Origin: Vigna angularis
Lineage: Eukaryota > Streptophyta > Magnoliopsida > Fabales > Fabaceae
DNA: 64,000 nucleotides
Assembly (NCBI RefSeq): GCF_016808095.1
Contig: NC_068970.1
Span: 49,883,630-49,947,629, forward strand
Reading direction: 5' to 3'
The notes beneath the pieces were generated by a model, which had not been told where the DNA came from, searched no databases, and worked only from the letters and a program-made list of their open reading frames with translations. Each line of letters starts with the position of its first letter. Within the stretch, counting starts at the first letter, position 1. Shown here piece after piece: positions 3,733-37,956 of this stretch. A program made the translations under genes and the position numbers.

Positions 3733-4549
3733 CTATAATCAATGGAAATAATTAGGTAATATATACAAAGTTTTTCATGACATTACATTAATGAAACAGA
3801 AATACAGAAAACAAAGTTATAGAAAATATGAGCATACTGCACAACCCCAGAAAAGAAAACACTGATAGTTAAATTTCCAATACCAAACCCACATGTGACA
3901 TGTACACATTCAACCTCTCGATCTTAACCTTGTGCAAAATCGATTTCTGATATAATATATAAACATCCATCCTTAAAAGCTATTCCACAACAGAATCCAT
4001 CTCTGCAGTGGAAATCAGAACATATAAACAAATTAACAAAAGGAATGCACGGGCAGTTAACACTTATGTAACTTCTAAAAGACACCATAAACTTAGTTTG
4101 ACCATTCTATGACAAAAAAAAAATACTCATATAATGCTTATGTGTATTTCCCAATCCGAAAGAGCAACAAAACAAATATATTTTACCATTAAAGAGTTAT
4201 GACAGTTTAGGAAAGCCCCAACAGGGGCTCCATATTAGAGGAAAACTTAAACCATAAAAGCAACACACATAAAATAATATAATCTAGAATATTTGGCAAA
4301 GAAAAAAGTTAAATCAATACTAACTATGTTTTTCATTACTTAAAAATCAACAGCCCAAGGAGTAATGGCACGAGCCAACACATGCAAAAAAGGGATGCAC
4401 TAATCATAGTTGTCAACACTCAATTTCGTCCGGATTGACTAAATATTTTTGTTTTATTGTTTTCTCCTCATAAAAAGAAAAATTGAAAAAAATGTATATA
4501 TAAGAAAAAAAAAGAGTAAAAATAAAATAATAAAAAAAAAAGGATGAAG

Positions 4550-5620
4550 CGTTCGTCCAAACAGTGACCGTTCGTCCTTCTTCACTGTTGCTGTGGCCGC
4601 TCGTCCAAACTGTGCCCGTTCGTCCTTCCCCACTGTTGCTGTGACCGTTCGTCCTTCCTCACTGTTGCTGCGACCGTTCGCCCATAAGCGACTGCTTGAG
4701 CGTTCGGTCTTTCACACTTTGAGGACGTTCGGCAATTCTCATGTTCAACCGTTCGGTCATCCTCAAGCGTTCACTATTCGGCCGTTCGGTCATTGTGTTA
4801 ATTTAGGACGTTCGTCCTCTGTTTCGAACCGCTCGTCCTCGCCTTTATGCGAACGTTCGTCCTCTGTTTCCAACCGTTCGTTCTATGCCTATTTCGAACG
4901 TTCGTCCTCGCCTTTATCTGATTGTACGTCCTTGTCCGCTCGGTCAAACGTGATCAGCTTTCAAGCGTTCAACCTCAAAGACGTTAGGACGTTCGTCATC
5001 AACCGTTCGTCCTCCACCGTTCGGCCTATCAGTTTGATCAGGCGTTCGTCCTAACAGTTCATCCGCTCGTCCTTTGCACTGTTCTACCGTTCGGTAATTC
5101 GGTGTGTTAGATCGTTCGTCCTCATCTTCAACTGTTCGGTCATAATGTTTTGATGAACGTTCGGGCTCAATGATATATGTCTTCAGCGTTCGGCGTTGGA
5201 CGTTCGGCCGGTGTTCAGCAAATAGCCGTCGGTCATGTTTGTGTTAGTGAACGTTCGGTCTTGTTTTGTATTAGTGAACGTTCGGTCTGGTTTTGTATTA
5301 GTGAGCGTTCGGTCTTGTTTTGGGTTAGTGAACGTACGTTCGGTTTTGTGTTAGTGAACGTTCGGTTTTGAAGTTATTTATTCTCATTTGAACGTTCGGT
5401 CTTTATGTATGACTGATAAGCGTTCGGTTTTAGGCGTTCGTTATTGGTGTATGATTGATTTTGAGCGTTCGGTTTATATTGTTTAATGAGCGTTCGGTCA
5501 TCACTTGAACATTCGGTCTTTCATTTCATGTTTGTTTTCAGCGTTGGTATTTCCTGCGTTTGTTTTTGAACGCTCGTTCTGTGCCTTGTACGACCGCTCG
5601 CCCAATTCCTTCCCTTTTCT
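4550..5620. repeat. CGTTCGTCC / CGTTCGGTC motif array in the LTR
   Basis: Dozens of short motifs (ACCGTTCGTCC, AACGTTCGGTC and variants) at irregular spacing of about 15-40 bp, changing from mainly CGTTCGTCC on the left to CGTTCGGTC on the right. The copy in the 3' LTR is at about 38110-39185. Related CGCTCGTCC units form an internal array at 12061-12540. Confidence 0.85.
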
Positions 5621-8539
5621 ACCACTCGTCCAGGGAAATTATTGGTTGGTGTGCGTGGTAATTCATTCACGTGGAAGCACATGGTTCAACTTTGGGCTGC
5701 TGCCACGTCCATAGGAAACGCCATATTCATTTTGTTCTTGGCTTGGAACGTGGTTTTCAATGGAGGAATGAAAAGAATGTTCGCTGATTTTTCATGGCAG
5801 AAGCACAAGGCCTTGTTGGAATAGGAAGCATTGATCACGGACTTGCAGTAGCATGTCATGACCTATACCATTCTAAAGCTGCATGCACAAGGCATGTACA
5901 TTCAGGAAAATCCAGCAAAGAGTGCACACGGTGATGAGGAAAAGGAGAGTTCTATTCTTCATAAAGTGAAGCAAGCATGGCACGGCAAAATGGCTGGAGG
6001 TAAAGAAGGAAGACTGTCACGGCCTGCACCAGCTCGGGACAGCAGCAGCTCACTCATTCCGTTCAGCAGCTGTGAAACGTCCGTCCAATCCAGCAGCTGC
6101 CACGGTCCACCATCCAGCAGTTGAGAAGCTCACGGCCTGCAGCAACAAATTCCATCCAGCTTGAGACGCACATGGCAGCAAAACAAAGGGCATGGTAGCA
6201 CGTGAAGATGGTAAGAAGCATGCAGAAAAATAGTGTAAGTGCACTGGGAAGGAGGTGCTGCCACGTGAAAGTGAGCTGGAGGCACATTGAAGTAATGGCT
6301 TTCTTTGAATAAAGAAAGAGCAGCTGCTATGTTTTGTTTGTATTCACTTTTGTTTGGTTTGGTGAGCATGTGACGGACAGCAGGGCCACTAAGGAAAAGC
6401 AGTCAGAAGTTGGCAGCATTAGAGTCACCAAACGGACAAATCTTTGGAAGTGGACTGAGCACAATGTTTCTTTCTTTCAAATAATTCACAGGAAGAATAC
6501 AATTTTTATTGGAAAAGGGGGCCACCATGTTTAATTTGAAGAATGAGGTCAAAGGAAATTGGCAACATATATTTTCTTTTCGATAAGTGGAGTGCCAAGA
6601 GGGGTCAGCAAAAAAACCAGGTGAATAAACAGATACTCATATGTTGAGTGGAGCACAACGGATGGACTATCCCATGTACTAGACGGCAGAGTATGGCATT
6701 GAGGGTGCTGTCCAACTAAGCACAAAGAATGAATTTAGAAGCATCAGCACGTATGAAAGGAGAGGTGGTGCGCTGATGTAGGGGGCCATTTCATTCTGTT
6801 GAAGAGAGAGGCTTGGAAGGAAACTCCAGGGTTCAGTAGGAGCAGCTGCAGAAATGGAAGTATGTCACAGCCAAGTGCACAAAAGGAAGTGAATGCCGTA
6901 AACTTGAACCATGAAACTCTTCCTGCACCTCCTCCTCTTCTTCTGCTTCCTTCAAGCAGCAGTTCCCATTGGTCCACTGTCCTCAAATGGGTCTCAACCG
7001 GTGCCCCAACCTCACGGCCAACCCCTATCATCACCTTGTTTTTTCTGCATTTTGATCACCAAGTGTTAATAACCACAGTCAACACCTCTGAGCATTTTTC
7101 TCCACCTTCACACCTAATCATCAATCTTCACCCTTACCTCACGGCCATTCCCCCAATCTTCATCATCTTAACATCATCTTCAACACCTCATGACCACAAC
7201 CATTTTTCCTTTCTCACTACCAACTCTGTTATCTTCAACGCCGGTGATCATCTCCAAGACCCCGGGAACACCCGCACATCCCTTCCCTCTTCGTTTTCAC
7301 CTCACAACCAACTTCATCATCTTCTTCCACAACATCAGCAACAACAACATTCCCTATTCATCTCAAACGCCCGCCACTACTAGAAACGGCCATCCTCCAT
7401 ATTCACACACAGCCAATATCATCACCTTCATTTCCAACACGCCTCACGGCCATCCTTATACCATTTCATGGCAGCACCTTAGTCTTCCTCTATTTCCTCC
7501 GTTTTCATCATCCTAACAAACAGAAAACCAAATTTGAGTGTCATCGGAGACTCTGCCTCAGCCTTTACCTGTCGCCCCTGAACCAAACCCGAATCACCAT
7601 CCTTTACCTCCGCGTATGTCTATCGCGACCTTCATCAACAGCACACTTCAGATCCGGTCACCGTCGTTCTCCGCCTTTGCCATCTTCGTCGGCAACTTCA
7701 GTTATGGAGGGCGTCACCGCCTCTACCTCGTAGCCGCCGTCTTCTTCTCTCCTAGGTCAATACCCGCCACCACGAGCTCCAGCGTCGATCATCCGATTCA
7801 CCAACCTGCTACCGTGATATCCACTCCGCCAACCCCTCGCCAGCCATCACCAGCGCCTTCCCTATCGCGAGCCACGCCGCGGTGGCCATGGAAGAAAGAG
7901 TCTCCCCACGCTGTGGCTGCCAAGTCTAGGAAGAAGGGAATTTGCTTCCTTTGGTCTCAGTCAGGATTGAGAAAAACCCTGAAGAAGAGTTTGGGCTTGG
8001 AGCCCGTTTTGGTTTCTTAATAAAAATAATAAAAAAAAATAATAAAAACAGCTTTCTCCTTCACGCAGTCCCCGGTTTTCATCTTTACACCTCCTTCCAT
8101 TTGGGTTTAAACCCATCAATTTCTGCAAACAAATATAAAAAAGCATTTGGGCCGGACAACTAGATACTCAATGCACTTCCAGTTTTATCTTGACACCCCT
8201 GGCGGATACAAAGACAAAAGAGGGGATTTTGGCCCAAACAGAGGAGCTTCAATTTCACATGTCACTCCTGGTTTTATCTCTACATCTCTGATTTGTTTCT
8301 CTTGTTTTATTTTTTTCACGCTTCAGTTTCTTATAATTTTATTATTATTTGTTTGGTCATTTAATTTTTATTGTGTAATCCCCTTGTAAAATAACCCCCA
8401 TCCCTCTGTACTGTATTTTGTATTATTTATTTGTTAAACACTGCACACACTCACTTTTTTTTATATAATTGAACAAAAATCACAAAAATAAGTAAATAAA
8501 ATAATAATAATAATGAATTTGACAAAATCACAGAAATAC

Positions 8540-8790
8540 GTTTTAAAGGTTTAGGCACATGTGTGATCGCACGCATCGTCCTTGTGCCAAAAACCTTTTC
8601 TCTTTCTTCAAAAAAATGCTAAAAATATGTTTCAAAGGTTCAGGCACATGTGTGATCGCATGCATCGTCCTTGTGCTAAAAACCTTTTCTCTCTTTTCAA
8701 TAAAATTACAAAAAATATGTTTTAAAGGATTAGGCACATGTGTGATCGCACGCATCGTCCTTGTGCTAAAAAACCTTTTCATTCTCCTAA
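8540..8790. repeat. Tandem repeat, 3 units of about 86-90 bp
   Basis: Each unit begins GTTTTAAAGGTTTAGGCACA and carries TGTGATCGCACGCATCGTCC and a CTTGTGCYAAAAACC segment. The matching place in the 3' LTR (42104-42435) has four units, which accounts for most of the 87-bp length difference between the LTRs. Confidence 0.85.
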
Positions 8791-8869
8791 ATTAAAATAC
8801 CAAAAACATATAAAAAAAAATCTTCAAAAACTAAAAACATCTATTTTTCAAATTCAAACAATATCGCCT

Positions 8870-9110
8870 TGTCAGAACTACGTGATCCTTGATTCTCCAT
8901 CAAAAGTGGAGATACGTAGGAGCAAGGCCAGTCCTTGTTAGGCTCACTCTCCCAAAAATCCAAATTTATCCATAATCATTTTCTCAAACAATTTTCAAAC
9001 AAATTTTCAAACAGTTTGTAAAAGAACTACGGAACCCTGATTTCTCATTCTTAATGAGAATACGTAGGAGCAAGGTCAATCCTTGTCGGGCCCAAAAAAC
9101 TAAAAAATAT
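8870..9110 (+). other. Two stem-loop units in the Ogre LTR leader
   Basis: Each unit reads GAACTACG - hairpin - ATACGTAGGAGCAAGG. The hairpin at 8894-8912 has arms TCTCCA/TGGAGA. The one at 9042-9060 has arms TTCTCATT/AATGAGAA. Flanks are conserved while arms change together, so pairing is kept. I recall a similar ACTACG...TACGTAGG element near the end of LTRs of other Tat/Ogre families. Confidence 0.65.
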
Positions 9111-9415
9111 ATGTTGTTTCTTTAGAATCTTATTTTAGGGGATAGTTAAACATTTTGAAAACCACATCATATTCGCATATTTAGTTAAAGGTACTGCCTT
9201 AGGGCAGGCGTTGTAGGGTGCTGATAACTTCCCTACACGTAACCGACTCCCGAACCAAGAATCTGGTTCAATTTGACTATGCCTTATCATTTTATGGTTT
9301 TTCCGTAGTTTTCCAGAATAAACTATGGTGGCGACTCCAAAATCTCTTTTCAATATTTATAAATCTTTTTTTTTTTATTGGATCGTCGTCCCGTCGCGAT
9401 TCCGGTTGCGACAGA

Positions 9416-9437
9416 TGGCGACTCCACTGGGGACTCC
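9416..9437 (+). other. Primer binding site of the Ogre-type element
   Basis: TGGCGACTCCACTGGGGA followed by CTCC, starting 2 nt after the 5' LTR. This is the site where a tRNA 3' end primes minus-strand synthesis. Ogre elements are reported to use tRNA-Arg; I infer the same tRNA here without checking it. Confidence 0.85.
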
Positions 9438-10559
9438 AGAGAGTCAGGCCATTTAATTAGATGTGCGAATTCAATGTGGTTTTTCTTTGTGTTCTTCTTC
9501 CTTTTTTTCTTTATCCTTATTTGATATTTGTCATAATTGTATATGTGTTTGTTTTGATTATATTGAACCCTAGGGTAGAAAACATGTTATATCTGCCTGG
9601 GAATTTTTCTGGTTGTTTTGCAGGTGAGGGTTTGGGGTGTACGATTGCATTCTTCCTTTACACACACACAATATGCATATCATGAGTGGGGCCCTATACC
9701 CGGGTCTGAGCGCAACTTAGAAATAGAGGGGTTGTGTAGCGGTGTCATTTGGGACATACTTCCTGTTTGGCTATCGTGAGAACCCCAGCCAGAGTCTGTT
9801 CTCTTCATTTGTGTCTCCACATCTAGTTGATTACTCTGACTGTTGTGGAGAAACAGTGAAAAGAGCCATAGCTCTGGTGGCCTGATTTAAGCATTAGGGA
9901 GCTATCCTTGTGAGTGCATATATTTGGCCCTAGAACTTCAGTCATCCAACCTTTGATAAGGCACAAAAGGGAGAAATGTGTATTCTTATAACCCTCATGT
10001 TTGCTTAATAAAAGTCACGCACCTTGTACATATCATCATATCTCTTTATCTTTTTTTTCTTTCTTTCTTTTGCTTTTTCCTTTTTCTTCGCTCATTGTTT
10101 TTCTTCATAGTCTTGTCACATTTTGTGGATTCTAGTCAAAAATTATAAAGTTGTGATTAAGGCCCTTAAGCTAAAAATGGAAATTAACATGGAATTTGAG
10201 TCAAGGGGTATAAGAATTTGGTGAGTTTGTCAGAGGGGAAGAATTTGGGAAAATATTAAATGCAAGTCTTGAGGCCAAAGCTTTATACAACTAAATCGGG
10301 CAATATACCCATGTCCCGTCCTGGCTGAAGTTTATGGGACCCTTAATCGTTGTTACGAACTTAAAGAGGGAAAGATGTTATGTTGTCTACCAGTGGTGTA
10401 TTTGTGGTTCATTTCCCGTGAGACTGGAGACGCCTTAAATTCCCTGTACCCCATGGACAAATTATTGTAGTATGTAATCGATTACAAGGACATTGTAAAC
10501 GATTACCCGAGAGAAAATTGGATTTTGTACAAAAAGTCCATCACAGGTACTCAGTCAGG
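9438..10559 (+). other. Ogre leader, no intact ORF
   Basis: Region between the PBS and the ORF1 remnant. It contains a 14-bp palindrome TGTAATCGATTACA at 10473-10486 with a half copy at about 10494. I see no coding sequence I can support; any N-terminal ORF1 code is too broken to read. Confidence 0.5.
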
Positions 10560-11400
10560 TGAACATGGGTCACCATTGGAAAAAGAAGTGACTTTTAGGC
10601 ACTTTTGCGCTTGTCTTAGGCTGTTCCTTGTGAACCACATGTGAAAAGAGTAAATGAATGGGCGCAACTTTGTGCAAGTTTAAATGAAGAACAAGTTAAA
10701 TGGTGTGTCCCTTGGGAGCATAGATCGCAGATTACATATCATTGCGGGAGATATCCTAATGTACCCCTCATGGGTATTAGGTGTTGTATTAATTGCAATC
10801 CTGTGTTAGCGCAAAAGATAATTTGAGTATCCTGAGAGGATCGCTAACACCTGCATCTCTCGCCACATTGCAGATCATATGAGGAATGAATCTTCGCTGA
10901 AATGTTCTATCAAGTTAAAGACAATTGGGGGCAATGTTGTTCGCTTCAATGAAAGGCCCAAGATCATGAACTGTTAATGAAAGTTTCCCTTAGCCAATGA
11001 ATCACAGAAAGGGTTAAGACAATCAAGTTGTAATTAATTTCCCTTACCCAAATTGCGAAAAGAAATTTCAAAATGATGAGCAGTGGATAGAAGCAGCAAT
11101 GACAAAACTAGAGAAGGAATGTTTCCATTTAGCTAAGAGGGAACATAAAAGATTGATGAGTCAGATGAAGAAAGAATATGTCGTTGAACAAGGACAAGTT
11201 AAAAGAATTGGAAGAGAAGTCTCTCACAGCTAGCTTCCCTTGCCAATGGAGCCATTGAAAACGTCCTTAAGTTCTTAGTTGATGCTGAGTCTGTAATATC
11301 AATCATCAACCCGCCTAAGGGGATTGAAACATTCCTCAATTACTGCGAGAAGCTGATCAGACAAATGAAGAATGTGATGACTAAAGCCTGCGATGGTTGA
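10560..11400 (+). pseudogene. Broken Ogre ORF1 remnant
   Basis: Ogre elements carry an extra ORF of unclear role upstream of gag. Here 10641-10826 encodes RVNEWAQLCASLNEEQVKW, then YHCGRYPNVPLMGIRCCINC and NPVLAQ, which I recognise as the conserved core of that protein (annotated in plants as a DUF7745-like plant mobile domain, from memory). Further pieces follow in shifted frames: a charged coiled coil (EQWIEAAMTKLEKECFHLAK) at about 11081-11200 and GAIENVLKFLVDAE...INPPKGIETFLNYCEK at about 11252-11360, typical of its C-terminus. Several frameshifts and stops separate them, so no full protein can be made. Confidence 0.65.
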
Positions 11401-13644: not shown

Positions 13645-13886
13645 TCAGCGAAAAAATTCCCGAGCTGGTTGCGGTGGTCTGAGGGAGAGCTCCGTCGAAG
13701 GAGCTCTGGTCCGGAATGTGAGAAGCATGGGTGGAGGGATTTGTCGTGTGTCCCTGTCGTCGTCAATGATGATCGGAACGGGGAACAAGTCCAGCAGTCT
13801 CGGCGCCCTCATGATCATCCAGTCGTATTCTTCCAAAAAAAAAAACAAAAAAAATTTGTCAATAATAAGATGAAGAGGGAAATTTT

Positions 13887-13922
<36 letters not shown>

Positions 13923-14221
13923 GGGTGGAGGTGATCAGGATGCTTACCATACATGTATAGCGGCAGTTGTGAAAACTGAGTGCCAGTGGGGTCTATCTCC
14001 GCTTGCCAGCGCCTGACCCGATTGCCGTGGTTGTTAAACCAGCAGTGCACATTGTATTCGCTGACATCTGCGAAAACCCTTAGTCGAGACGCAATCTCGA
14101 CGACTTGCGCTCTGCTGGGATGTGTGACCCCGTAGTTGTAAATATTGGTCATCATTCTGACCTGATCGTCAGTAGGTCTCCACCGCTGACCGGTGTACCT
14201 CTCCATCTCCATCTCGCTCAT
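13645..14221 (-). CDS. Antisense WUSCHEL-type homeodomain gene inside the Ogre (two coding exons)
   Basis: Coding exon 1 runs 14221-13948 and exon 2 runs 13829-13645, giving about 152 residues. Exon 1 residues 13-73 look like a WOX homeodomain: RWRPTDDQVRMM in helix 1 and NVHCWFNNHGNRVRRW in helix 3. It keeps W48, F49, N51, H52, R55 and R57, with Asn for Gln50 and Gly for Lys53. The donor is ATG|GTAAGC and the acceptor TTTGGAAG; exon phases agree. Exon 2 has RLLDLFPV, close to the WUS box (TLxLFP), and ELSLR, a possible EAR-like repressor motif. The intron holds a 31-A run (T on the gene strand). A 5' UTR intron and TATA box lie upstream. WOX proteins are DNA-binding regulators of stem cells. 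Expression is not shown; a decayed or element-adapted copy is possible. Confidence 0.7.
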
Positions 14222-15163
14222 CTTTCCTCTCTAAGTTTTCATACAAAAAAAAAATATATAAAAATAAAAAGAACAAAAACATAACAAAAGCATAAAACAA
14301 AAAGTATTTTCAGTGTTTTCTTTATTCGTTTTTGTTTCCTTTTAAGTTTATCTTGTCCGGTCGGTCTTTGTTATTTCAGTGTCTGGTCTCGGATCTGTTT
14401 CACGGTCCTTGCAAAAGGGTCCTAAACGGATCTATGTCCTTTTGTCTTTGTCCATATTGTCCATGTTCGGTTCATACAATTAAAATTATCTTTTTAAGTT
14501 TTCTGATTTTATGGGGTACGTGGCGTTGTTCTACCCGATTGTCTCTGCCATACCTTCAATCGAAGGGAGATAAACGTCTGGTTTCCAGCCTATATACCCC
14601 TTAAGTTTAAGACAGTTGTGTTTTTAAGTGTTTTAAGTTTTTAAAATTAAAAGAAAGGAAGAAAGAAGACTCAAAAAGAAAAGCAAAGAAGAGCAAGACG
14701 GAAATAAAAGCAGACAAAGCGGAAAGCAGAAGAAAATAAAGAGCTTGCAGGAAAGGAAAGCAGAAAAGAAAAAAACAGAAAAGGGAACAAGAAAGGAAGG
14801 CAGATGCAGAAAGCTAGAGAGTAAAAAATAAACCAGAAATCGTAAAGGAAAAGAAAAACGAAAAAAAACAGAGAAGGAAAGATCGAAAGAACAGAAAAGC
14901 AGAGAAGGAAGGATGGAAGGAAGAAAAACAAAAAATTAAAGGAAAGAAAGAAGATCGAAGAGCTCAGAAGACTTACCTGGAAGTGGAAGGGCTTACAGAA
15001 GCTCGTCGCAGCACTGGGACGCCTCCGAAAGCACACGGGGGCAGAGGCTCCTCGCAGAAATCCAGACGCTCAAAGAATAGAGAGAAGAGAGAAAGGGAGA
15101 GCAAGAGAGAGAGAGTGATCAGACTGAAATGTCGCCCAACGCGGAGGAGCTCTCGACTTATAG
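14222..15163 (-). promoter_or_regulatory. TATA box, 5' UTR exon and 5' UTR intron of the antisense homeodomain gene
   Basis: On the - strand a TATA box (CTATAAG, 15163-15157) is followed by a CT-rich leader typical of plant 5' UTRs. The leader ends at a perfect donor, CCAG|GTAAGT, exon end at 14977. A matching acceptor (AACTTAG, exon resumes at 14230) lies 9 nt before the ATG at 14221. The intron would be 746 nt. The model is inferred from signals only. Confidence 0.55.
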
Positions 15164-22010: not shown

Positions 22011-22689
22011 AATTTACATCAGCCAAGATTTCAAATCCTTGTACAAAAATGCAACACCTTGTTTCTTAATTTCAAAATTTTCAAAAAAAAAAAATCAAAA
22101 ATCAAAATCAAAAAAATTTTCTCAAAATTTCAACCAATTCCAATTTTCAAATTCAAAGCAATCAAACCTTTTTCTCTCTGCCATTTTATCTCGGCCATCT
22201 GCAAGATAATGGTCGAAACCTTTTGTTCTCCCATTTTGTCTCGGCCATCTGCTAGATAATGGTCGAGCGCACTTTTCAATTTTGTTTTATCTCGGCCATC
22301 TGCAAGATAATGGTCGAGCGCACTTTTCAGTTTTGTTTTACCTCGACCATCTGCTAGATAATGGTCGATCGCACTTTTTCAGTTCCATTTTATCCCGGTC
22401 ATCTGCAAGATAATGGTCGGAAGCACTTTTCTCTTGTTTTATCTCGGCCATCTGCTAGATAATGGTCGAGCGCACTTTTCTCTTTTTTATCCCGGCCATC
22501 TGCAAGATAATGGTCGAAAGCACTCTTTTGTTTTGTTTTATCTCGACCATCTGCAAGACAATGGTCGAAAGCACTTTTGAGTTTTTTTTATCTCGGCCAT
22601 CTGCAAGATAATGGCCGAAAGCACCTTTTTCAGATTTGTTTTATCTCGGCCGTCTGCTAGCACTACAAGAAAAAGTTGAATTATATACA

Positions 22690-22935
22690 ACCAAAATCCG
22701 TATATAAGACCCAAAATCCGTATATAACACTTGGTTACATACGACTTATATACGGACAAAAATCCGTATATAAAATCATCGTAGCTAAATTATATACGGA
22801 TATATCCGTATATAAATTATATACGGATAAATCCGTATATAATTTATATACGGATAAATCCGTATATAAAATCTGTATATAATACATTAAAAAAATATTT
22901 TTTTACATACGGATAAATCCGTATGTAACATATAA
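22690..22935. repeat. Left subterminal repeats of the CACTA element
   Basis: At least eight copies of the near-palindrome TATATACGGAT-AAATCCGTATATAA or half units of it. The mirror block is at 27775-28015. Confidence 0.85.
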
Positions 22936-23449
22936 TAGAGAAAAAAAATAATTTTAATTGTAAAAATAAAAAGCTTTAAAACAAAGAAACTTACAATATA
23001 AATGAGTGATAATATAGTGATTAAAAAGTCTTAGTAAAAGTAAAAATTATAATTTAGTTGTTAGATATGTAAAAAATATCTCAATCATATTTTGTATAAT
23101 TTAAGGACAAATTGATCTTCTTTGACATTACAACATAATTATTATTTTTTTACATATTAAATAACTAAATCAAGATGTACCAAGATGATTTGCCTTTATC
23201 ATAAAACTACTACAAAATCATAAAATGAAGTGCAAGTGATGGCAAACTTGTATAAACTGACATAACATGGATCACATGTTAGCATCATCATTTATTCCTT
23301 ACATGGATATCTCAAACCACTTTCATCTTCAGGAGTGAACAATTACACTCAAAATTTATGAACAAAAAAGAATGAGAACATTACATTTTTGTAACTAATT
23401 TATCTATACAAATATTCACAAACAGAATTGGAGTACTTGGCAACGGATC

Positions 23450-24210
23450 AAGCTGATACTCAGACTTCGTCAAAGTCACTGTTTTGGAATGTATTTCCTT
23501 CCACCTCATTGTCAAGTTTCTGCAACACAGTGAATTTTGTCATTGAAGACAATAATCCAAGTTAATGTATAAGTATGTCAAACCTATGCAAAAGAAACAA
23601 AAGCAACAAATCATATACCATAAAAAACCAATTCTTCCATTATTTTTTTCATCAGTCAAAGAGAATGGCTGGTGCAAATTAGGTTCTTTACTGACAAGTA
23701 ACAATTAAGTTGCTTAGGAATTAAAGGAAACGTAGCTAGAATTATGCATTACACAAATGTGACGGGAATAAGTTCTATCACTTGAAATAATGGCAGCAGA
23801 CAAGACCTTACTAGTATTGCTTGACTTAGCTTTTTTCCTAGTTTTTCTTCTACTTAAAAAAATGGTGAAAAACTCTTCCGAATTAGGGAGCTGATGATAA
23901 AAGAAAGGCAGGGATAAAGTGGGTTTTAGACAAGAAAAGGAAAACTGACTGAAGTAGTTTTTAGAAATAAGTTGCACATTCTAGCCTCCTTTTTTCTCTC
24001 ATTTAAAAATAATTGAAGCAATGTTGTATGGAGAAACAAAGCTGCAAAACGACTTTTACTTTGTTTTTAGAACTCTAATATTTTGAAAAAAAAAAGTGAA
24101 CCAAACAGTTTACAATTACCACTTGGAGTACTTCATTGACTGACCATCCACCATCCATTCTTTGGGCATCCATGCGACTGTTAAAAAATTCTAACACCTG
24201 CAAATATAAA
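23450..24210 (-). pseudogene. Unidentified captured exons in the CACTA element
   Basis: On the - strand about 24205-24118 encodes [18 protein letters not shown] followed by SVNEVLQVV. About 23522-23460, after a CAG acceptor, encodes KLDNEVEGNTFQNSDFDEV and then a stop. They look like the last exons of a gene (acceptor signals, codon-like composition), but I do not recognise the family. Confidence 0.35.
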
Positions 24211-25307
24211 ATAGACCACATTACTTGAACACTCTTGAGACATGACGTATTATACAAAGACAATATTCACAAATGTAACTAAAGACTATGAAATGTGCTC
24301 CTTTAAAGTTGCAAGATTTTAAAGGGAAAATGCATAATTTTATAGACTAAGAAGGAAATGCATGTTATAGACTAAAGACAAATACAATATTATATAAAGT
24401 TATTGCTATTAGTTTCAACTTTCAACAAATGTAAAGAATTTATAATATATAATTATGCTTAAAACAAATAATTAAAACATAAAATTTTTTATTAAAAGAC
24501 TATAAATAGAGTTCAAAACAAACCGGCCCTTGTACAATATATACAATATAGAGTTGAGTATTAACTAAACTCTAATTTACACCTAAAAGTAAAAATATTT
24601 CCTAAAACATTTGAAAAAGGAAAGAAGAAGAGGACTTTACAGTGTGAAGTCAATCTTCCATTACGCTGTCGTGGCCATCAATGTTGCATTTAATTATTAG
24701 CAAGGATTACCTCAAATATCCAAGTCAATTATTATAAATAAGATAGAATTCAATTCTATCAAAGAATGTGGTTAGACTATGGAACCTGACATTATGATAG
24801 TGTAAGGGTCAAACAGAACAGTAGCTAACATATATGTATTTCGTCATTAAGAATGAAGGATTTCAAGGAGTAAGCAGCATCACTAACATGTCAAACTATA
24901 TCTATGAGTAATATTTGTTCACTCACAGAGTTTTGTGACCAGGTTTTATTTATAAACTTTATCAATCACATGTCAAAAATCCATCAGTTTTTAATGAAAT
25001 ATTAAAAGAAAAAGTTGTATCAGATGAGAGAAACTTCTAAGTTTTAGGTGCTGCTTTATATTTTTACTTTAAACTAATTTAGTTCTTGAAACATAATTTA
25101 GTTCTTTAAACTAATTTAGTTCTTGAAACATAATTTCATAAAATGGACGATATATAATTTTAATTACTAAGAAAAAATCCTATTCAATTCACATTCCACA
25201 ATCCATACCAGTAGTAGTTTAATAGTTTTATTCAATCAATTTGATTCATCTCATATAGATGAAGAAAATTATAAAATTAAAACGAGAAGGAAACTCACAC
25301 ATACAAA

Positions 25308-25630
25308 TCCTTTACTGCAAAAGGAACTTGCTCTGTAAGCAGAAGAGAAATTATAGCTAGGTAGAAAGCAGAGGATTGTCTACCACCAGTGTGTATTCTT
25401 TTATCTGAGAACTGGACTTTGAAACTATGAAGAAAGAAAGTAGATGTCTGCAAACGAAAAATATAGATGTATAAGGAAGATGAATATGACTTGAAGATTT
25501 CTACTTAGAATGTAAAGTTGGTCATTCATAGAATATATCTTATCATGTATCAAAAGACTAGCAAACTTACAAGAATAACAACTAATTTGGCATCAGGGCT
25601 CCACACGGCCTTCATGTTTTCTCCTTCACT
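25308..25630 (-). pseudogene. Captured exons of a RIC1-like protein
   Basis: Exon 25630-25571 (after TTGCAG, before GTAAGT) encodes EGENMKAVWSPDAKLVVIL. Exon 25447 to about 25308 (after TTTGCAG) encodes FFLHSFKVQFSDKRIH, then FYLAIISLLLTEQVPFAVKD. These match my memory of the N-terminal WD40 region of plant RIC1, the Ric1-Rgp1 complex subunit that acts as exchange factor for Rab6-type GTPases at the Golgi. Exon-intron structure is kept, so genomic DNA was captured. Only about 65 residues are present. Confidence 0.7.
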
Positions 25631-25892
25631 CTGCAATGAATGAAAAGACTAGAAAACTATTTTACACTGTCAGTGCATTATCATTAACTAATGTTTTAAT
25701 TCACTATCATGTAGCTTTAGTTAACGAGTTCATAATTAATTTACTAGAATAACAAAAACATGAAAATGAACAAATGTTTTGCCTCATTCTCAAAATTTAA
25801 AAAAATGCAAATTAATAAAAGAGACAAGGCCATAGAACATTCCATTATACTTTAATATGAACAGAATGTTAGAAATGACCAAGAATTGAACT

Positions 25893-25975
25893 ACCAGGGT
25901 GGTCAAAGTTGTAATCTTGTACTTGTGTAAGTTCCTCCTCAGACAAGCTATTGTAAAAGGAATCATGTCATTACT
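25893..25975 (-). pseudogene. Captured exon of a uridine kinase-like gene
   Basis: The - strand frame reads DSFYNSLSEEELTQVQDYNF-DHP. This is the segment of uridine/cytidine kinases around the conserved D-S-F-Y and Y-N-F-D-H-P motifs that contact nucleoside. In plants it is usually part of bifunctional uridine kinase/uracil phosphoribosyltransferase-like proteins of nucleotide salvage. The frame has stops just upstream, consistent with intron or decay. Confidence 0.65.
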
Positions 25976-26097
25976 ATTTATCAGATCCTACCTTTGTGCA
26001 TTGGGATCCAACCTTCAAAATAAAAACAACAGATGAAGTTAATTATATGTGCATAGCGATAGCCATAGTTTTCTTAAAAATCACGATGCATCTTGGA

Positions 26098-26178
26098 TTT
26101 GGATACCTTGAGTGCTAGATAATAAGCCCCATCACTTGTTTTAACATCCCTCATAAAAACTTCAACAACATTAACCTA
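26098..26178 (-). pseudogene. Unidentified captured exon in the CACTA element
   Basis: Encodes VNVVEVFMRDVKTSDGAYYLALK before a donor-like GTATCC. A short continuation VGSQCTK precedes GTAGG near 25990. I do not recognise the source gene. Confidence 0.3.
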
Positions 26179-26323
26179 TAGAGGTTAAGAATAAAACTTC
26201 AACGAAGCCTGTGTTTCTTTTCACCTTGAACATTTCTTCTTCTGCAGAATAAACTCCAAACAAAGCCGTGGTTAATGCAGTTTGCTAAACCAACGAAGAT
26301 AATCCTAGTGTTTTGATACTTAC

Positions 26324-26815
26324 CTCCCTTAGCAAGGCATCATCAAGCTCCTGCTTATCATCAAGAGTTATGTCTTTGGCATAAAATTTAGACAGAATTC
26401 CTTATCCTACAATGCAGATCAAAACCAGAAAGCTCAATTTTGGTGTCCTGAACCAACTTAAACAAAGGAAGTATAAAATTGAATAATGAAGCTGAAAAAC
26501 ATTATACTTTTGTAACAAACCTTGCGTGCTTTTGATGCAAAGATCTATGAATTGATTGAGTAGGATGAGTAGTAAGAACCAGATCAACAGTCTGGTTTTT
26601 CAGTGCATCAAAAACTTCCTAAGGAGACTTCTTCAAGCCAAATACAAGTTTCTTGAGAGTTTCTTCAATGTTTGATTCTGTAGTTGCATTGTTCTCATCT
26701 GCAAAATCTCCTTTCTTCACCTTGTTCCTTCGACGACGAGAAATCTGGACCTCCTCAGCCAATTTGGCCAAGTTAAGCATGTGGGAAAAGGACATGGCAA
26801 CAACAATAGAGTCCC
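26324..26815 (-). pseudogene. Captured exons of phosphoenolpyruvate carboxylase
   Basis: Exon 26815-26521 encodes [37 protein letters not shown], then after an in-frame TAG (expected CAG, Gln) [15 protein letters not shown] and HPTQS. It ends at a donor (GCAAG|GTTTGT). Exon 26406-26324 encodes YAKDITLDDKQELDDALLRE before GTAAGT, with a 2-nt deletion near its start. Both follow the known PEPC gene order and exon limits. PEPC carboxylates PEP to oxaloacetate in the cytosol. Here it is a broken genomic fragment of about 125 codons, lacking the catalytic core. Confidence 0.85.
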
Positions 26816-27179
26816 CTGCATCCAAACAATAGAGTCCCCTGCACACGCATCACAAAGAATCAAACTGAGTAATTAACGGATCCCCATCAACAGTGAACTA
26901 CACAATCCATTGCAGGCCAAAGCATATAATTTTTATGATAAAAAAAAATTAATACACTCATTAATTACAAACGCATTGCGTCATAAACATTAGAAAAGCA
27001 TTCAATTTCTCTATACAGGCAAATAACCAAAGGCGGTTATATCACCATGATGGATCTAAATCTGGCAGAAGAAACAAAACCCATAACAACATATTATTAA
27101 GCAAATGAAGCAAAAGAACACAGTACAAACAATTTTTTCTGCATCTAAGAAACTTCAAAAGGCAAAGGAACTCACTCAC

Positions 27180-27720
27180 CTTTGGTTGCTTCACTAAGGG
27201 CCTTCATAATCAAATGGTATATGTCTCAGTCCTACATACCACTGACAATCTTCTTAAACCGCCAAACACTAGCCTCAATCGATGCTTCCTAACACTCCAA
27301 CCACGGCTTGCGAGACCAACCACAAATGTGTCAAATAAAACAAAAAACGACAAAGATTAGGGTTCGTGATTAACGATTTCATCGATTACTAAGCATTAGG
27401 ATTAGGGTTTACTTACCAGATGAAGATACTCCTTCAGCGTCCAACTACGACACCCGACGAACAAGGAGATTGCTTGGTGAACGCCGAAACACGACGGACA
27501 CTTCGACAGAGAGAGAGGACACAGAAGCAGAGCACGACGGACAGGGACTGTGAAGAGGGCTGGAGAGAGGGACAGGGAGAGTGAAGACGGCTCGAGAGAG
27601 GGACGGCGAGAGCTCCAGGGTTCAAGAGAGAAAGGACTCGAGGGTTCGAGGAGAGACATAGCTCGAGGTTTTCAGAGAGAGTAGCTCGACGGTTCGAGAG
27701 GGATAGCAAAGAGTGAATGA
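27180..27720 (-). promoter_or_regulatory. Possible transcript leader of the CACTA element
   Basis: On the - strand this GC-richer stretch holds repeated CTCTCTCGAACC-like phrases and short Ser/Leu/Pro-rich frames (27402-27659). It sits where the 5' end of an internal transcript reading through the captured exons would begin. Composition differs from the AT-rich interior. Inference only. Confidence 0.3.
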
Positions 27721-28442
27721 TAGGTTTCAGCTTCTAATTAATCAAAAATACATTTTTTTCAAATTATTTTTGAAATCCGTATATAACATACTTTATTCTA
27801 CTTACATACGGTTAATGGAAATTACATTGGGATATATCTTATGAAATTTTCCCGCCGTCACGCGCCTACTTTATGTATGAAATTTATATACGGAAAATTT
27901 GTATATAATATTTGTATGTAATTTTTTTTAAAATCCGTATATAATATCCGTATAAAATATTTAAATTATATACGGATTTATATCCGTATATAATAATCCG
28001 TATATAATTCCAATATTTCTTGTAGTGTAGATAATGGTCGAAAGCACCTTTTGTTCTGTTTTTTATCTCGGCCATCTGCTAGATAATGGTCGAAAGCACC
28101 TTTTCTTTTGTTTTATCCCGGCCATCTGCAAGATAATGGTCGGAAGCAGTTTTCAGTTTTGTTTTATCTCGGCCATCTGCTAGATAATGGTCGAAAGCAC
28201 TTTTCTTTTGTTTTATCCCAGCCATCTGCAAGATAATGGTCGGGAGCACTTTTCTCTTGTTTTATTTTGGCCATCTGCAAGATAATGGTCGAAAGCACTT
28301 TTTCGGTTCCATTTTATCCCGGCCATCTGCAAGATAATGGTCGGACGCACCTTTTGTTTTGTTTTATCTCGGCCATCTGCAAGATAATGGTCGAAAGCAG
28401 TTTTCAGTTTTATTTTGTCTCGACCCTCTGCATGGCAATGGT

Positions 28443-29572
28443 TGTTAGCAAAATGATGAAGATGAAGTTTTGATGATGTCCAAATCAAGTCAAGAACAAT
28501 CAAGAATGATCTTTGTAGATGATGTCCAAATCAAGTCAAGAACAATCAAGAATGATCTTTGTAGACTTGAAATATTTTGTAATAATTGTATGAACATAGG
28601 AAAATTAGTTGTTTCATGTATGTATTCAAAAGTGATGTAAAAATAAATCATAAGCAAAATTCTGTGCAGTGTTAATCGATTAACAAAGGGTGTTAATCGA
28701 TTAACGTTAATCGATTAACAAGGGCTGTTAATCGATTGTTCCAGAGAGCCATGGAGAAGCCCAGCAGTGCAGTGCTAATCGATTAACAGAGGGTGTTAAT
28801 CGATTAGCGTTAATCGATTAACAAGGGCTGTTAATCGATTAACAAGGTGAACGTTTGAAAAACTAGCCGTTTTTAGAGCCGTTGAAGTATCCGTTGGATT
28901 GTTAATCGATTAACCACTGTAGCTAATCGATTAACACAGTCAGAAAGTCTAAAAGCGAAAATGGAGGAGCCTTTGGATGAGTCTATAAATAGACTCTCAT
29001 TTTCTCTCAACCACAATTCTTCCCTTGTGCAAAAATCTCTGAACTCTTGTGAGAACTCTGTGAAATTGCTGAAGCTAAGGAAACTCTTGTCTGCAAAGTC
29101 CTGAAGTGGTACTGCGGTGACAGAGGAATAGCTTGATCATCCTTGGTGTGTCTGAGGAAGTGTCTGGAAGAGAATCATCCTTCGTGAAGCATTCGAAGGA
29201 GGTGATCATCCTTTGTGAAGATTCAAAGGAGGTGTAAGTTCATCTCTTGTGGTTTCAAGAGAGGTGGTAATTTCTAAACTGTTACAAATTGTTTTTCTTT
29301 GTGACTAATATTTGTAATAGTTTTGTGATAGTGAAAAAGGTTTATCTTGTTTGAGATAAGCGACTGGACGTAGGATCTTAGTGATCTGAACCAGGATAAA
29401 ATACCTGTGTAATTTTTCTCTTTCCCTTACTCTTTTATTTACGTTTAATTATCTGCTTAGTAAGAAATTAAGAGAAAAAGATTAAAAAGGGATAATATTT
29501 GAATATAACCAATTCACCCCCCCCCTCTTGGTTTGTTCCCACGCTAACCATTCCGCTGCAGCCGCTCTGACA
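28443..29572 (+). repeat. 5' LTR of the Sirevirus
   Basis: 1130 bp. Starts with two tandem copies of a 'GATGATGTCCAAATCAAGTC' segment, followed by a block of ten GTTAATCGATTAAC palindromes or near copies (28671-28935), TATA-like CTATAAATAGA at 28981-28991 and a C-run near 29517. Confidence 0.95.
28671..28935. repeat. GTTAATCGATTAAC palindrome cluster in the Sirevirus LTR
   Basis: Ten sites, about six of them perfect 14-bp palindromes. The same cluster is at 36464-36728 in the 3' LTR, and four perfect copies lie at 34488-34557 before the third ORF. It sits just upstream of the TATA-like sequence. Conserved LTR palindromes are a reported hallmark of Sireviruses. Confidence 0.9.
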
Positions 29573-29574
29573 AT

Positions 29575-29586
29575 TGGTATCAGAGC
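29575..29586 (+). other. Primer binding site of the Sirevirus
   Basis: TGGTATCAGAGC, 2 nt after the 5' LTR, complementary to the 3' end of plant initiator tRNA-Met. Confidence 0.95.
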
Positions 29587-29606
29587 TTGCTTTGATAGTC
29601 ATTCAA

Positions 29607-31307
29607 ATGGCGGGATCGCATCAAACCTTTGCAGAGGGTGCTTCTATCAATAGACCACCACTATTCACTGGTGAGAATTACGCATTTTGGAAGGTAAGAA
29701 TGCAAATATTTATGGAGTCTATTGATATAGATATTTGGGATGCTGTTGCATCTGGTCCTTTTGTTCCAATTAACAATATGCAGGAACCAAAGCCCCGTGA
29801 TCAATGGACTGCTGAAGATAAGAAAAGATTTGGTAATGATGTAAAAGCTCGTAATATTATTTCATCTGCTTTAACTGTTGATGAGTTTTACAGGATTTCT
29901 ATTTGTAAAACTGCACAAGAAATGTGGGAAGTACTTAGAGTAACCCATGAAGGTACAGATGATGTAAAGAGAGCTAGAAAGAATACCTTAATCCAGGAAT
30001 ACGAAATGTTCAGGATGAAGCAAGGGGAAACAATAGTAGATGTTCAGAAACGCTTCACCAACATCGTAAACCATCTTATTGGACTAGGTAAGTCTTTCGA
30101 TACAGATGAACTTAACATTAAAATCTTGAAGTCTTTAGACAGGTCGTGGCAACCAAAGGTGACTGCAATTTCTGAGTCACAAAATCTCAACACAATGACC
30201 ATGGCGGCATTATTTGGTAAGTTGAGAGAGCATGAACTAGACCTTGGAAGATTAGATGAAGAAGAAGCAAAAACTAAGAAAAAGACTCTAGCATTCAAAT
30301 CTGAGGTAGAAAAGAGCAAAAACAAGATGGAAGATGAAGACTCAGATGAAGATGAAAACTTGAGTTTGTTAATCAAGAGGTTCAACAGGTTCATGAAATC
30401 AAAAGGCAAAGGGAGATTCAGAAATGAAAAGAGAGAAAATCAAGGATCTTCCTCAAACTATAGATGTTATGGTTGCGGAGAAAAAGGACATTTAAAAGCA
30501 GACTGCCCAAATCAAAAGAAGGGTGAAGAAAAGAAAGAAAAGAAATTCTTCAAGAAAAAGAGAGCATACATCGCATGGGACGATGACAACGAATCAATTT
30601 CTGACTCAAGCAGTTCTGATGAAGAAGCAAACATATGTCTAATGGCGGATGACGATGACGCTGGAAGCCAAGTAAGTACATCTAACGATTCAGATAATTC
30701 TAGTCAATATGATAGTGAAACTGAATTGCATGATACTTATGCTGCTTTATTAGTAGAATCCGAAAAATTAGATATAGCTCATAAGAAATTGAAAAAGGAT
30801 TTCAAAGAGTTAAAATTAAATTTTGGAAATATTCTTGAAGAAAATGAAAATTTGAAAATTACTTCTGAAAATTTCTCTAAAATTAATGATAATTTAAAAA
30901 CTGAATTTACAAATTTATCTGAAGAAAACAGAAGTTTGAAAAATAAATTTTTATATCAAGCAGAAGAAATTAGAAATTTAAAAAGTAAAGTTTTATTTTA
31001 TGAAAAAGAAAAATTTATTGCAAATAATGAATGTGAATCATGCATTAAATTCAAATATTTTTCTGAAAACACAACCACTGGAGAATGTAGTAAAAATAAT
31101 GAAAATAAGGTTGTAAAAAATAAGTATGTTCCTAAAATTAAGCATAATCATAGAACCAGTAGAACTTGGGTAGAAAAAGGAACAACTTATAGGAACACAA
31201 ATGTTGCATCATGCTTTTATTGTATGAAAAAGGGTCATACATCTAACAAATGTAAAATTAAGCATTATGGTGTTCCAAGTGGTAGATATGCTTGGGTTGT
31301 AAAATGA
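29607..31307 (+). CDS. gag: Sirevirus Gag
   Basis: 566 residues, start ATG at 29607 (MAGSHQTF) 20 nt after the PBS. The N-terminal half is a UBN2-type Gag domain (GENYAFWKVRMQIFMESID; later RITHEG-like and FGKLREHELDLGRL). A CCHC zinc knuckle follows (CYGCGEKGHLKADCP, near residue 290). Then come an acidic Ser/Asp linker, a long predicted coiled coil (repeated LKxxxxxLxEEN) and a second knuckle-like CFYCMKKGHTSNKC near the end. Gag forms the cytoplasmic virus-like particle and binds the RNA. The frame is intact. Pol begins in a different frame 105 nt on. Confidence 0.92.
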   Translation: MAGSHQTFAEGASINRPPLFTGENYAFWKVRMQIFMESIDIDIWDAVASGPFVPINNMQEPKPRDQWTAEDKKRFGNDVKARNIISSALTVDEFYRISICKTAQEMWEVLRVTHEGTDDVKRARKNTLIQEYEMFRMKQGETIVDVQKRFTNIVNHLIGLGKSFDTDELNIKILKSLDRSWQPKVTAISESQNLNTMTMAALFGKLREHELDLGRLDEEEAKTKKKTLAFKSEVEKSKNKMEDEDSDEDENLSLLIKRFNRFMKSKGKGRFRNEKRENQGSSSNYRCYGCGEKGHLKADCPNQKKGEEKKEKKFFKKKRAYIAWDDDNESISDSSSSDEEANICLMADDDDAGSQVSTSNDSDNSSQYDSETELHDTYAALLVESEKLDIAHKKLKKDFKELKLNFGNILEENENLKITSENFSKINDNLKTEFTNLSEENRSLKNKFLYQAEEIRNLKSKVLFYEKEKFIANNECESCIKFKYFSENTTTGECSKNNENKVVKNKYVPKIKHNHRTSRTWVEKGTTYRNTNVASCFYCMKKGHTSNKCKIKHYGVPSGRYAWVVK

Positions 31308-31411
31308 TTTTAATCTTTTAAATCTAACCCAAAGGACCCATACAAAGTAGTTGGGTACCTAAATAGCTTGTTCTTTTTATGTTGTAGGAATTATCAAAAC
31401 CAAGGAAGTAT

Positions 31412-34400: not shown

Positions 34401-34441
34401 ATGAGCTTAGAAGAGACTTAGGAATATTAAAAATATCTTAA
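31412..34441 (+). pseudogene. pol: Sirevirus Pol with one in-frame stop
   Basis: One frame of about 1009 codons interrupted by TAA at 32243-32245. Domains in order: protease (LDSGCSKHMTG at the start), GAG-pre-integrase zinc-binding HxxxxH...CxxC (LWHKRAAH, CDACQKGK), integrase core with HMDLF, VDDYSR, RSDHGGEF and, after the stop, [15 protein letters not shown] ([36 protein letters not shown]) and RNase H ([36 protein letters not shown]). Copia order is thus protease-integrase-RT-RNase H. The stop falls between the second Asp and the catalytic Glu of integrase, so integrase, RT and RNase H are not made without readthrough. The same frame continues upstream to WVPK near 31360 but has two TAG codons (31364 and 31385). 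Confidence 0.93.
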
Positions 34442-34487
34442 AATTGGACAAAGGGACAAATTTGCTGATTTTCGGAAATCAGCGTCT

Positions 34488-34557
34488 GTTAATCGATTAA
34501 CACGTCCTGTTAATCGATTAACGTTAATCGATTAACACACCCTGTTAATCGATTAAC
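34488..34557. repeat. Four internal GTTAATCGATTAAC palindromes
   Basis: Perfect copies at 34488-34501, 34509-34522, 34523-34536 and 34544-34557, just after the pol stop and before the third ORF, matching the LTR cluster. Confidence 0.9.
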
Positions 34558-34783
34558 AACGGTAACCTGCAGTAAATTCTGCAGAATCTAGCCGTTATAA
34601 ACGGCTATAAACGGTCATTTTCTTAATTTTGAACGTTAGGGGGGTCATTTTCAGCCTATTTAAACCCATACCATCCCTCATTTTTTACCCATTCACTTTA
34701 CCTATCTCTCTACAACTCAAATTCACTTCTTTTCTTCACTCAAATTCCATTCATTTGCTGTCCAAACCTTCTTTCACACTCTC

Positions 34784-35907: not shown

Positions 35908-36024
35908 GAAATTTATGTTGTTATTAGTATGTGCCCTTTATATTTCCTTGTATGCTTGCATCTTAATATTCAATAAAATGTATGTTGTCTTTTCTTATTC
36001 TTTCTATGCATACATGCTTTTATT

Positions 36025-37755: not shown

Positions 37756-37956
37756 CCTCATTCACTGCATCTGTAGCATTGGTGGACCTTCCACGAGGTT
37801 GTCACACTTCAATTTTCTCAGTTTTGTTTGTTTATTTTGTTCTCTGTTTGTTTCTTGTTTATCTTGAAATCCAGACGAAATTAGTATTTCTATCTTTACT
37901 TATCTTTTACTCTGATAATATGAAAACATTGTTTATCATATGATCTAGTAAAATCT

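What the first reader, a model, noticed from the sequence alone, without database searches (positions are those of the whole stretch)
13645..15163. Antisense, spliced WUSCHEL-type homeodomain gene carried by an Ogre-type retrotransposon
Seen: - strand TATA box (15163-15157), CT-rich leader, perfect donor CCAG|GTAAGT at 14977, acceptor at 14231, ATG at 14221, homeodomain-like exon, donor at 13947, acceptor at 13830 with matching phase, second exon with a WUS-box-like RLLDLFPV and ELSLR. Known: antisense ORFs have been described in Tat-lineage elements, and WOX genes carry a homeodomain plus TLxLFP box. Inferred: the element acquired a WOX gene with introns and a promoter. Introns survive only if transcription is opposite to the genomic RNA, which an antisense gene satisfies. 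A transposon-borne stem-cell regulator could alter host development, or the regulated tissue could favour transposition.
Basis: partly seen in the sequence, partly recalled or inferred. Interest (0 to 1): 0.9.

Follow-up and report, generated by a model that had tools for sequence, protein, structure and literature searches.

The report
Retrotransposon with antisense WUSCHEL-type gene
A large mobile DNA element in adzuki bean carries, in reverse orientation, its own intron-bearing gene of the plant stem-cell-regulator (WUSCHEL) type, and natural selection has kept that gene's protein intact while the element spread through the genome.

Summary
Confirmed and extended. The minus strand at 13645-15163 holds a gene with two coding exons for a 152-aa WUSCHEL/WOX-type homeodomain protein with WUS-box-like and EAR-like motifs. 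It lies antisense inside a complete insertion (4411-43063: 5-kb LTRs, target duplication, tRNA-Arg-like primer site) without recognisable gag or pol: a non-autonomous, Ogre-like element of Vigna angularis. Genome searches gave 621 (exon 1) and 574 (exon 2) candidates; the 150 scored for each all matched. Of 42 copies examined, 37 have an intact coding sequence; TATA, ATG and splice sites are nearly invariant, the exons have no frameshift indels against hundreds outside, and dN/dS is 0.14. Changes shared by copies are conservative, those private to one copy relaxed or neutral: the mark of a gene selected in the replicating element. In 13 of 20 wider loci the LTR end and primer site lie where expected, always with the gene antisense. 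Diverged relatives were found in three Vigna species. Function is inferred: an element-encoded transcriptional repressor. Transcription, DNA binding and benefit are untested; ten literature searches listed no report of it.

The parts
4411..9413 (+). 5' LTR (TG...CA, 5003 bp); target duplication ATAGT at 4406-4410
9416..9434 (+). Primer binding site TGGCGACTCCACTGGGGAC, two bases after the LTR; tRNA-Arg type (tRNA match recalled, not computed)
   Evidence: same LTR end + PBS in 13 of 20 other copies
10318..10817 (+). Decayed sense ORF with two DUF7745 (PF24924) fragments between primer site and gene; probably the Ogre-type ORF upstream of gag (inference)
13645..13829 (-). Coding exon 2: WUS-box-like RLLDLFPV and C-terminal TELSLR
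13830..13947 (-). Intron between the coding exons (GT...AG)
13948..14221 (-). Coding exon 1: ATG and homeodomain (residues 12-70)
14231..14976 (-). Intron in the 5' leader
   Evidence: in annotated copy P0059 leader and exon 1 map at 15231-14998 and 14254-13949
14507..14604 (.). 98-nt conserved noncoding block inside the leader intron; folds better as element-sense RNA (z -3.64) than as gene-strand RNA (z -1.75)
14977..15140 (-). CT-rich 5' leader exon (start site not mapped)
15157..15163 (-). TATA-like box CTATAAG of the antisense gene
   Evidence: 41 of 42 copies
22661..28027 (.). Nested CACTA-type DNA transposon (CACTACAAG...CTTGTAGTG, TSD TAG); later insertion
28443..37368 (+). Nested Ty1-copia LTR retrotransposon with gag, integrase and RT domains (TSD ATGGT); later insertion
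37944..37973 (+). Polypurine tract region (AAAGAGGGGCAGC) before the 3' LTR
37974..43063 (+). 3' LTR (5090 bp); 29 mismatches in 5001 aligned sites to the 5' LTR; target duplication ATAGT follows

Best explanation
An Ogre/Tat-like, non-autonomous LTR retrotransposon family of Vigna angularis carries a host-derived WOX gene as an antisense accessory gene with its own promoter and introns. The introns persist because the element's genomic RNA is made from the opposite strand and is not spliced at them. The gene makes a small homeodomain protein that keeps the two kinds of motif by which WUS-clade proteins recruit the TOPLESS co-repressor, while its recognition helix has changed. Most likely it is a DNA-binding transcriptional repressor used by the element in its own cycle, tuning sense transcription of element copies or local chromatin, much as antisense-encoded HBZ does in HTLV-1. 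Shown: gene structure, element context, high copy number, selection on the protein in the replicating lineage. Inferred: transcription, splicing in vivo, TOPLESS binding, DNA target, and that selection acts through element replication.
For: Homeodomain; predicted fold ranks STENOFOLIA and WUS homeodomain chains in the first eleven places (mean pLDDT only 49.7, ten-residue means 64-82 over residues 11-60; one match at E <= 0.001). Insertion: LTRs, TSD, PBS, PPT. Copies: 621 and 574 first-look candidates, 150 scored and 150 matched for each exon. Context: annotated V. angularis proteins P0002, P0017, P0038, P0056, P0057, P0059 run from or into other parts of this element; LTR end + PBS on the expected side in 13 of 20 9.9-kb loci, none on the other side or the other strand. 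Selection: dN 0.0248, dS 0.1813, ratio 0.137, exon 2 0.181, 860 of 861 pairs dN<dS; frameshift indels over 41 copies 0 in exon 1, 0 in exon 2, 429 in leader intron, 70 in intron 2, 136 in 3' flank; true-frame shared N/S ratios 0.09 and 0.13 against 1.2-2.5 in 8 of 10 other frames. Shared replacements conservative (BLOSUM 0.74 vs neutral -0.43, 0 of 2000), singletons neutral (-0.47). [quoted passage not shown]
Against: No transcript data. The WUS-box is LLDLFPV, not canonical TLxLFP (recalled), in this group. No consistent enrichment of known WUS sites in the element. No reverse transcriptase, so lineage is indirect. Copies were selected by exon-1 similarity. 7 of 20 wider loci showed no PBS within 6.9 kb; L016 has part of the PBS-ORF1 region in the opposite orientation. 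Counts of unchanged sites and of changes inside the homeodomain did not depart from neutral.
Confidence: 0.8

Rival explanations
1. Passive passenger: a WOX gene was captured once and is copied along with the element without being used.
For: Captured sequences in plant LTR elements are reported in large numbers (review PMC13317346, passages read); the element is otherwise non-coding as far as Pfam sees.
Against: dN/dS 0.14, no exon frameshift indels against hundreds outside, conserved TATA and splice sites, conservative shared replacements; same protein architecture at about 48% and 37% identity in two further groups.
Confidence: 0.04
2. The protein acts as a decoy: expressed from many copies it titrates TOPLESS away from silenced loci, helping the element by derepression rather than by binding particular element sites.
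For: WUS-box-like and EAR-like motifs are retained while recognition-helix residues differ from WUS and STENOFOLIA; high copy number.
Against: The homeodomain exon is at least as constrained as exon 2 (0.104 vs 0.181, with the exon-1 sampling bias), and W61, F62, N63, N64, R68 are invariant in 51 protein rows after masking of poorly aligned stretches, which a pure decoy would not need.
Confidence: 0.2
3. Selection is at host level: the plant benefits from dispersed WOX copies, or a few copies have become host genes.
For: Many copies are annotated as host genes, and one V. umbellata model joins exon 1 to an unrelated coding tail (P0071).
Against: Singleton changes look neutral (protein rows) or much relaxed (DNA), so most individual copies are not maintained; the pattern fits selection on the replicating lineage.
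Confidence: 0.07
4. An ordinary host WOX gene into whose introns or flanks an LTR element inserted.
For: Intron-bearing gene with its own TATA.
Against: The gene is internal to a TSD-bounded insertion and recurs on contigs C1 to C11, in the sampled loci mostly with element sequence around it.
Confidence: 0.01

Closest known systems
Antisense ORFs of Retand/Tat-lineage LTR retrotransposons (TRP28 domain; Grande, RIRE2, Retand)
   Same: Antisense accessory gene in a large plant Ty3/gypsy element, predicted DNA-binding, proposed regulator (PMC11963269: outline and passages read).
   Different: Those lie between pol and the 3' LTR and nearly always encode TRP28; here the gene lies about 4.8 kb after the 5' LTR in an element without pol and is a WOX-type homeodomain gene with introns. 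'homeo', 'WOX', 'WUS' and 'intron' do not occur in that main text. The Phaseolus Retand elements of PMC13392006 have a tRNA-Lys primer site (passages read), unlike the site here.
2-ODD (AlkB) ORF in giant Phalaenopsis Gypsy elements
   Same: Host-type domain gained by an Ogre-related element of about 25 kb and kept through replication; a tRNA-Arg primer site is given there as an Ogre trait (PMC9289625: outline, passages and section 12 read).
   Different: That element has an RT placed next to Ogre. The screen of 121 angiosperm genomes in that paper was anchored on reverse transcriptase, so an element like this one would be missed; 'homeo', 'WUS' and 'Vigna' do not occur in its main text.
WUS/modern-clade WOX proteins (WUSCHEL, STENOFOLIA, HEADLESS)
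   Different: 152 aa (HEADLESS has 302); homeodomain 37% and 39% identical to WUS and STENOFOLIA; the Q, K and A of WFQNHKAR replaced by N, G and N; carried by a mobile element.
HBZ of HTLV-1 (antisense retroviral regulator; nuclear role mentioned in PMC11963269, rest recalled)
   Same: Antisense-strand nuclear regulatory protein of an LTR element.
   Different: bZIP, transcribed from the 3' LTR (recalled), unrelated in sequence.

Membership tests
WOX (WUSCHEL-related homeobox) | Homeodomain of WOX type | tested here: met
   Pfam PF00046 above cut-off; WUS and STENOFOLIA lead the PDB sequence search and the fold search
WOX (WUSCHEL-related homeobox) | WUS-box TLxLFP (WUS clade; consensus recalled) | tested here: inconclusive
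   Window has RLLDLFPV (first T replaced); group III relatives have TLDLFPIP
WOX (WUSCHEL-related homeobox) | Clade placement in a tree with host WOX genes | not tested
   Host WOX genes could not be fetched: unanswered
Ogre/Tat-lineage LTR retrotransposon | Long LTRs and large size | tested here: met
   5003/5090-bp LTRs; 38.7 kb, about 24.4 kb by arithmetic without the two nested insertions
Ogre/Tat-lineage LTR retrotransposon | Primer site complementary to tRNA-Arg | tested here: inconclusive
   TGGCGACTCCACTGGGGAC; match to tRNA-Arg recalled; tRNA search unanswered
Ogre/Tat-lineage LTR retrotransposon | Reverse transcriptase grouping with Ogre, dual RNase H, gag-pol | tested here: not met
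   No gag, RT, RNase H or integrase domain in 150 internal ORFs; so an Ogre-like non-autonomous element, not a complete Ogre
Retand antisense-ORF (TRP28) elements | Antisense TRP28 (PF04195) ORF | tested here: not met
   No PF04195 among the families matched by 150 internal ORFs
Protein-coding gene under selection | dN/dS well below 1 in the true frame; frame kept | tested here: met
   (42 copies); the mirrored opposite-strand frame is also low, as shared third positions predict

The most novel reading that the evidence does not exclude
The element has domesticated a meristem-type regulator as its own master control protein: an antisense-encoded WOX repressor acting on element copies or on stem-cell chromatin to time transposition to cells that found the germline, while a conserved 98-nt block overlapping the gene's leader intron works on the other strand as a structured signal in the genomic RNA (for example packaging or export by a helper element).
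Probability: 0.25. Interest if true: 0.93.

Novelty: new variant of a known kind. Interest (0 to 1): 0.82.

Why it matters
Antisense accessory genes of plant LTR retrotransposons have been described without a clear origin or function. Here the gene has a recognisable host-type ancestor whose biochemistry is worked out (homeodomain, TOPLESS recruitment), keeps introns that point to the expressed strand, and shows selection at the level of the replicating element. That makes the question of what an antisense gene does for a retrotransposon directly testable, and shows a stem-cell-type transcription factor turned into a mobile-element gene. It also warns that these copies inflate WOX annotations in Vigna.

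Tried and rejected
Gag/pol remnants: 150 stop-to-stop ORFs of 46 aa or more from the internal region (of 152; the two overlapping the exons left out; LTRs not scanned) gave DUF7745 (2 ORFs), iPGM_N (1, E 2e-4, sought among ten ORFs at 19.7-21.0 kb and not found there) and DUF5347 (1). Enrichment of WUS-type sites: 15 region-motif tests, two nominally high in the 5' LTR (TGAA 4 of 200 shuffles, CACGTG 8 of 200), the rest not; no claim made. Conserved block: Rfam gave only one sub-threshold match, outside the block; a small sense ORF was rejected because variable sites fall on all three codon positions (read by eye); covariation is thin, one compensatory pair and a few G-U-compatible changes. 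Host WOX donor, group III gene context and tRNA-Arg gene: requests did not complete. Carrier of group II: no primer site in 7.6 kb sampled at 3.1-10.7 kb past the ATG of one copy, so undecided. Site-count and homeodomain-share tests at protein level did not differ from neutral. Literature: ten searches; judged by titles and abstract starts, and by passages of the six papers opened, none reports a WOX or homeobox gene in an LTR retrotransposon. Subscription papers (e.g. Steinbauerova 2011) were not seen.

Full report
The observation. Pfam calls a Homeodomain (E 2.2e-7); a PDB sequence search returns STENOFOLIA (1.2e-10) and WUSCHEL (6.9e-10), then two hits at E 0.37 and 0.53. A model of the 97%-identical annotated protein P0001, built on 25 copies, has helices where a homeodomain has them (mean pLDDT 49.7; ten-residue means 72-82 over residues 31-60, under 50 beyond residue 70), and its eleven best PDB matches are STENOFOLIA and WUS homeodomain chains, one at E <= 0.001.

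The carrier. The gene lies inside a complete insertion: LTRs 4411-9413 and 37974-43063 starting TG and ending CA, target duplication ATAGT on both sides, primer site TGGCGACTCCACTGGGGAC two bases after the 5' LTR and a purine tract before the 3' LTR. The element therefore runs on the plus strand and the gene is antisense, its ATG 4.8 kb beyond the primer site. The LTRs differ at 29 of 5001 sites, plus 4 gaps of 91 positions in all (K2P 0.0058; 0.22-0.45 My at recalled rates 1.3e-8 and 6.5e-9). Two later insertions sit in it, a CACTA element (22661-28027) and a copia element (28443-37368). The rest of the internal region has no gag or pol domain in 150 ORFs of 46 aa or more; the clearest domain is a decayed DUF7745 ORF at 10318-10817, sense strand. 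So the element is non-autonomous. A tRNA-Arg primer site and long LTRs are given as Ogre traits in PMC9289625 (passages), while the Phaseolus Retand elements of PMC13392006 use tRNA-Lys (passages); without a reverse transcriptase the Ogre label stays an inference.

Host. The window lies at C1:49883630-49947629 of an unnamed 448-Mb assembly of 33 contigs.

Copies. The 77 proteins found in three searches are all named as Vigna: V. radiata P0066, V. umbellata P0071 and P0075, the other 74 V. angularis (names are of cluster representatives). The search needs shared 5-residue words, so absence elsewhere is weak evidence. Exon 1 gave 621 first-look candidates, 150 scored, 150 matched at 91-100% identity, 6 of 150 with a stop; exon 2 gave 574, 150 scored, 150 matched at 92-100%, none with a stop. 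These are the best candidates, not a random sample. Six annotated proteins (P0002, P0017, P0038, P0056, P0057, P0059) extend into sequence antisense to other parts of this element. Of 20 loci of 9.9 kb, 13 have the LTR end plus primer site 3.3-6.5 kb away on the expected side; none has a primer site on the other side or on the other strand, and 20 shuffled stretches had none. 12 of 20 match the 9414-12000 region over 87% or more in the right orientation; L016 has half of it in the opposite orientation. The seven without a primer site in range include L027 and L028, which match the window in the gene only.

Selection. 42 copies (the window, L007, L009-L048) were aligned; at least one pair (L016, L031) are neighbours 16.7 kb apart and not independent. 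The spliced reading frame is intact in 37; the five others have a premature stop (4) or lost ATG (1). Mean dN 0.0248 and dS 0.1813, ratio 0.137; exon 1 0.104, exon 2 0.181; dN<dS in 860 of 861 pairs; introns differ by 0.16-0.18, the leader exon and 3' flank by 0.23. Over the 41 copies other than the window, frameshift indels number 0 in exon 1, 0 in exon 2, 142 in the leader exon, 429 in the leader intron, 70 in intron 2 and 136 in the 3' flank (copies share history, so these are not independent events). Per-site nonsynonymous/synonymous ratios for changes shared by copies are 0.09 and 0.13 in the true frames; the other four frames of the same strand give 1.5-1.8, four of six opposite-strand frames 1.2-2.5, and the two whose third positions coincide with ours 0.16 and 0.28; six pseudo-frames in intron and 3' flank give 0.6-1.2. 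Singletons in the true frames are less constrained (0.29, 0.50). In 51 annotated protein rows, replacements shared by two or more rows are conservative (mean BLOSUM62 0.74 vs neutral -0.43, 0 of 2000) while those private to one row are not (-0.47) (permutation 9 of 20000). Counts of unchanged sites and of changes in the homeodomain did not differ from neutral. Because copies were picked by exon-1 similarity, exon-1 values are biased low; exon 2 and splice sites were not picked directly but are linked.

Relatives. Group II (P0060-P0068, P0072; 46-51% identical to P0001) and group III (P0073-P0077; 34-38%) keep the order homeodomain, LDLFP motif, LSLR motif, except truncated models such as P0071 and P0072. 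P0069 and P0070 were not assigned. Group II has the same exon junction; 25 exon-1 places at 69-98% identity to P0060 were listed in the genome. Group III has TLDLFPIP. The nine homeodomains of the three groups compared share a Cys before WF and a Gly at the Lys of WUS KAR, suggesting one origin. The carrier of groups II and III was not established.

A second conserved feature. Inside the leader intron, the stretch 14620-14501 is as conserved as the exons in group I (0.976-0.984 majority identity), and 14507-14604 is nearly unchanged in group II, where the proteins are only about half identical. All 54 loci then held (L001-L054, some places held twice) yielded the block, 20 distinct sequences. 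It folds better on the element-sense strand (-33 kcal/mol, z -3.64) than on the gene strand (z -1.75); one pair shows a compensatory change and several changes are G-U compatible on the sense strand only, while one pair of the single-sequence structure fails in 13 of 20. At 98% identity this is suggestive only. It may belong to the genomic RNA rather than to the gene.

Mechanism. [quoted passage not shown] in Medicago HEADLESS only the combined mutation of both abolished binding (PMC6305195, passages). The retained motifs and homeodomain make a repressor the simplest reading; regulation of the element's own transcription is the favoured use, a TOPLESS decoy the main rival. Neither is shown.

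Novelty. Antisense ORFs in Tat-lineage elements and captured domains in Ogre-like elements are known kinds; a selected, intron-bearing antisense homeodomain gene is a new variant. The ten literature searches listed no report of it, within an open-access library; the RT-anchored screen of 121 genomes (PMC9289625, section 12) would not see an element without RT.

Noticed in passing
14507-14604: 98-nt noncoding block in the antisense gene's leader intron, conserved across two protein groups that are about 50% identical; stable hairpin on the element-sense strand; no Rfam match in the block.
   Followed up: partly
G000 exon-1 list, e.g. C4:5006239/5022477, C3:7267957/7284366, C1:55706141/55722849: Ten same-strand pairs of copies lie 15-22 kb apart with equal scores (read by eye), as expected of tandem elements sharing an LTR.
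   Followed up: no
L013, L018, L019, L022: Primer-site region about 97% identical to the window while the gene region is only 83-88%: element copies look like recombinant mosaics.
   Followed up: no
P0071 (V. umbellata): Annotated protein joins the group II homeodomain exon, at its splice donor, to an unrelated C-terminal tail; possible capture of host exons by the antisense promoter, or a gene-model artefact.
   Followed up: no
10318-10817: Decayed sense ORF with DUF7745 fragments; no paper in the library names DUF7745; it may mark the Ogre ORF upstream of gag.
   Followed up: partly
one of the 150 internal ORFs: iPGM_N (phosphoglycerate mutase) match at E 2e-4, not located; may be a small captured fragment or chance.
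   Followed up: partly
34784-35737: The nested copia element carries an extra ORF after RT with a sub-threshold Transposase_32 match (E 6.5e-11, 42.9 bits against cut-off 45).
   Followed up: no
12184-12488: Tandem repeats of 69 and 88 bp inside the element on the gene's 3' side, giving long chance ORFs on both strands.
   Followed up: no
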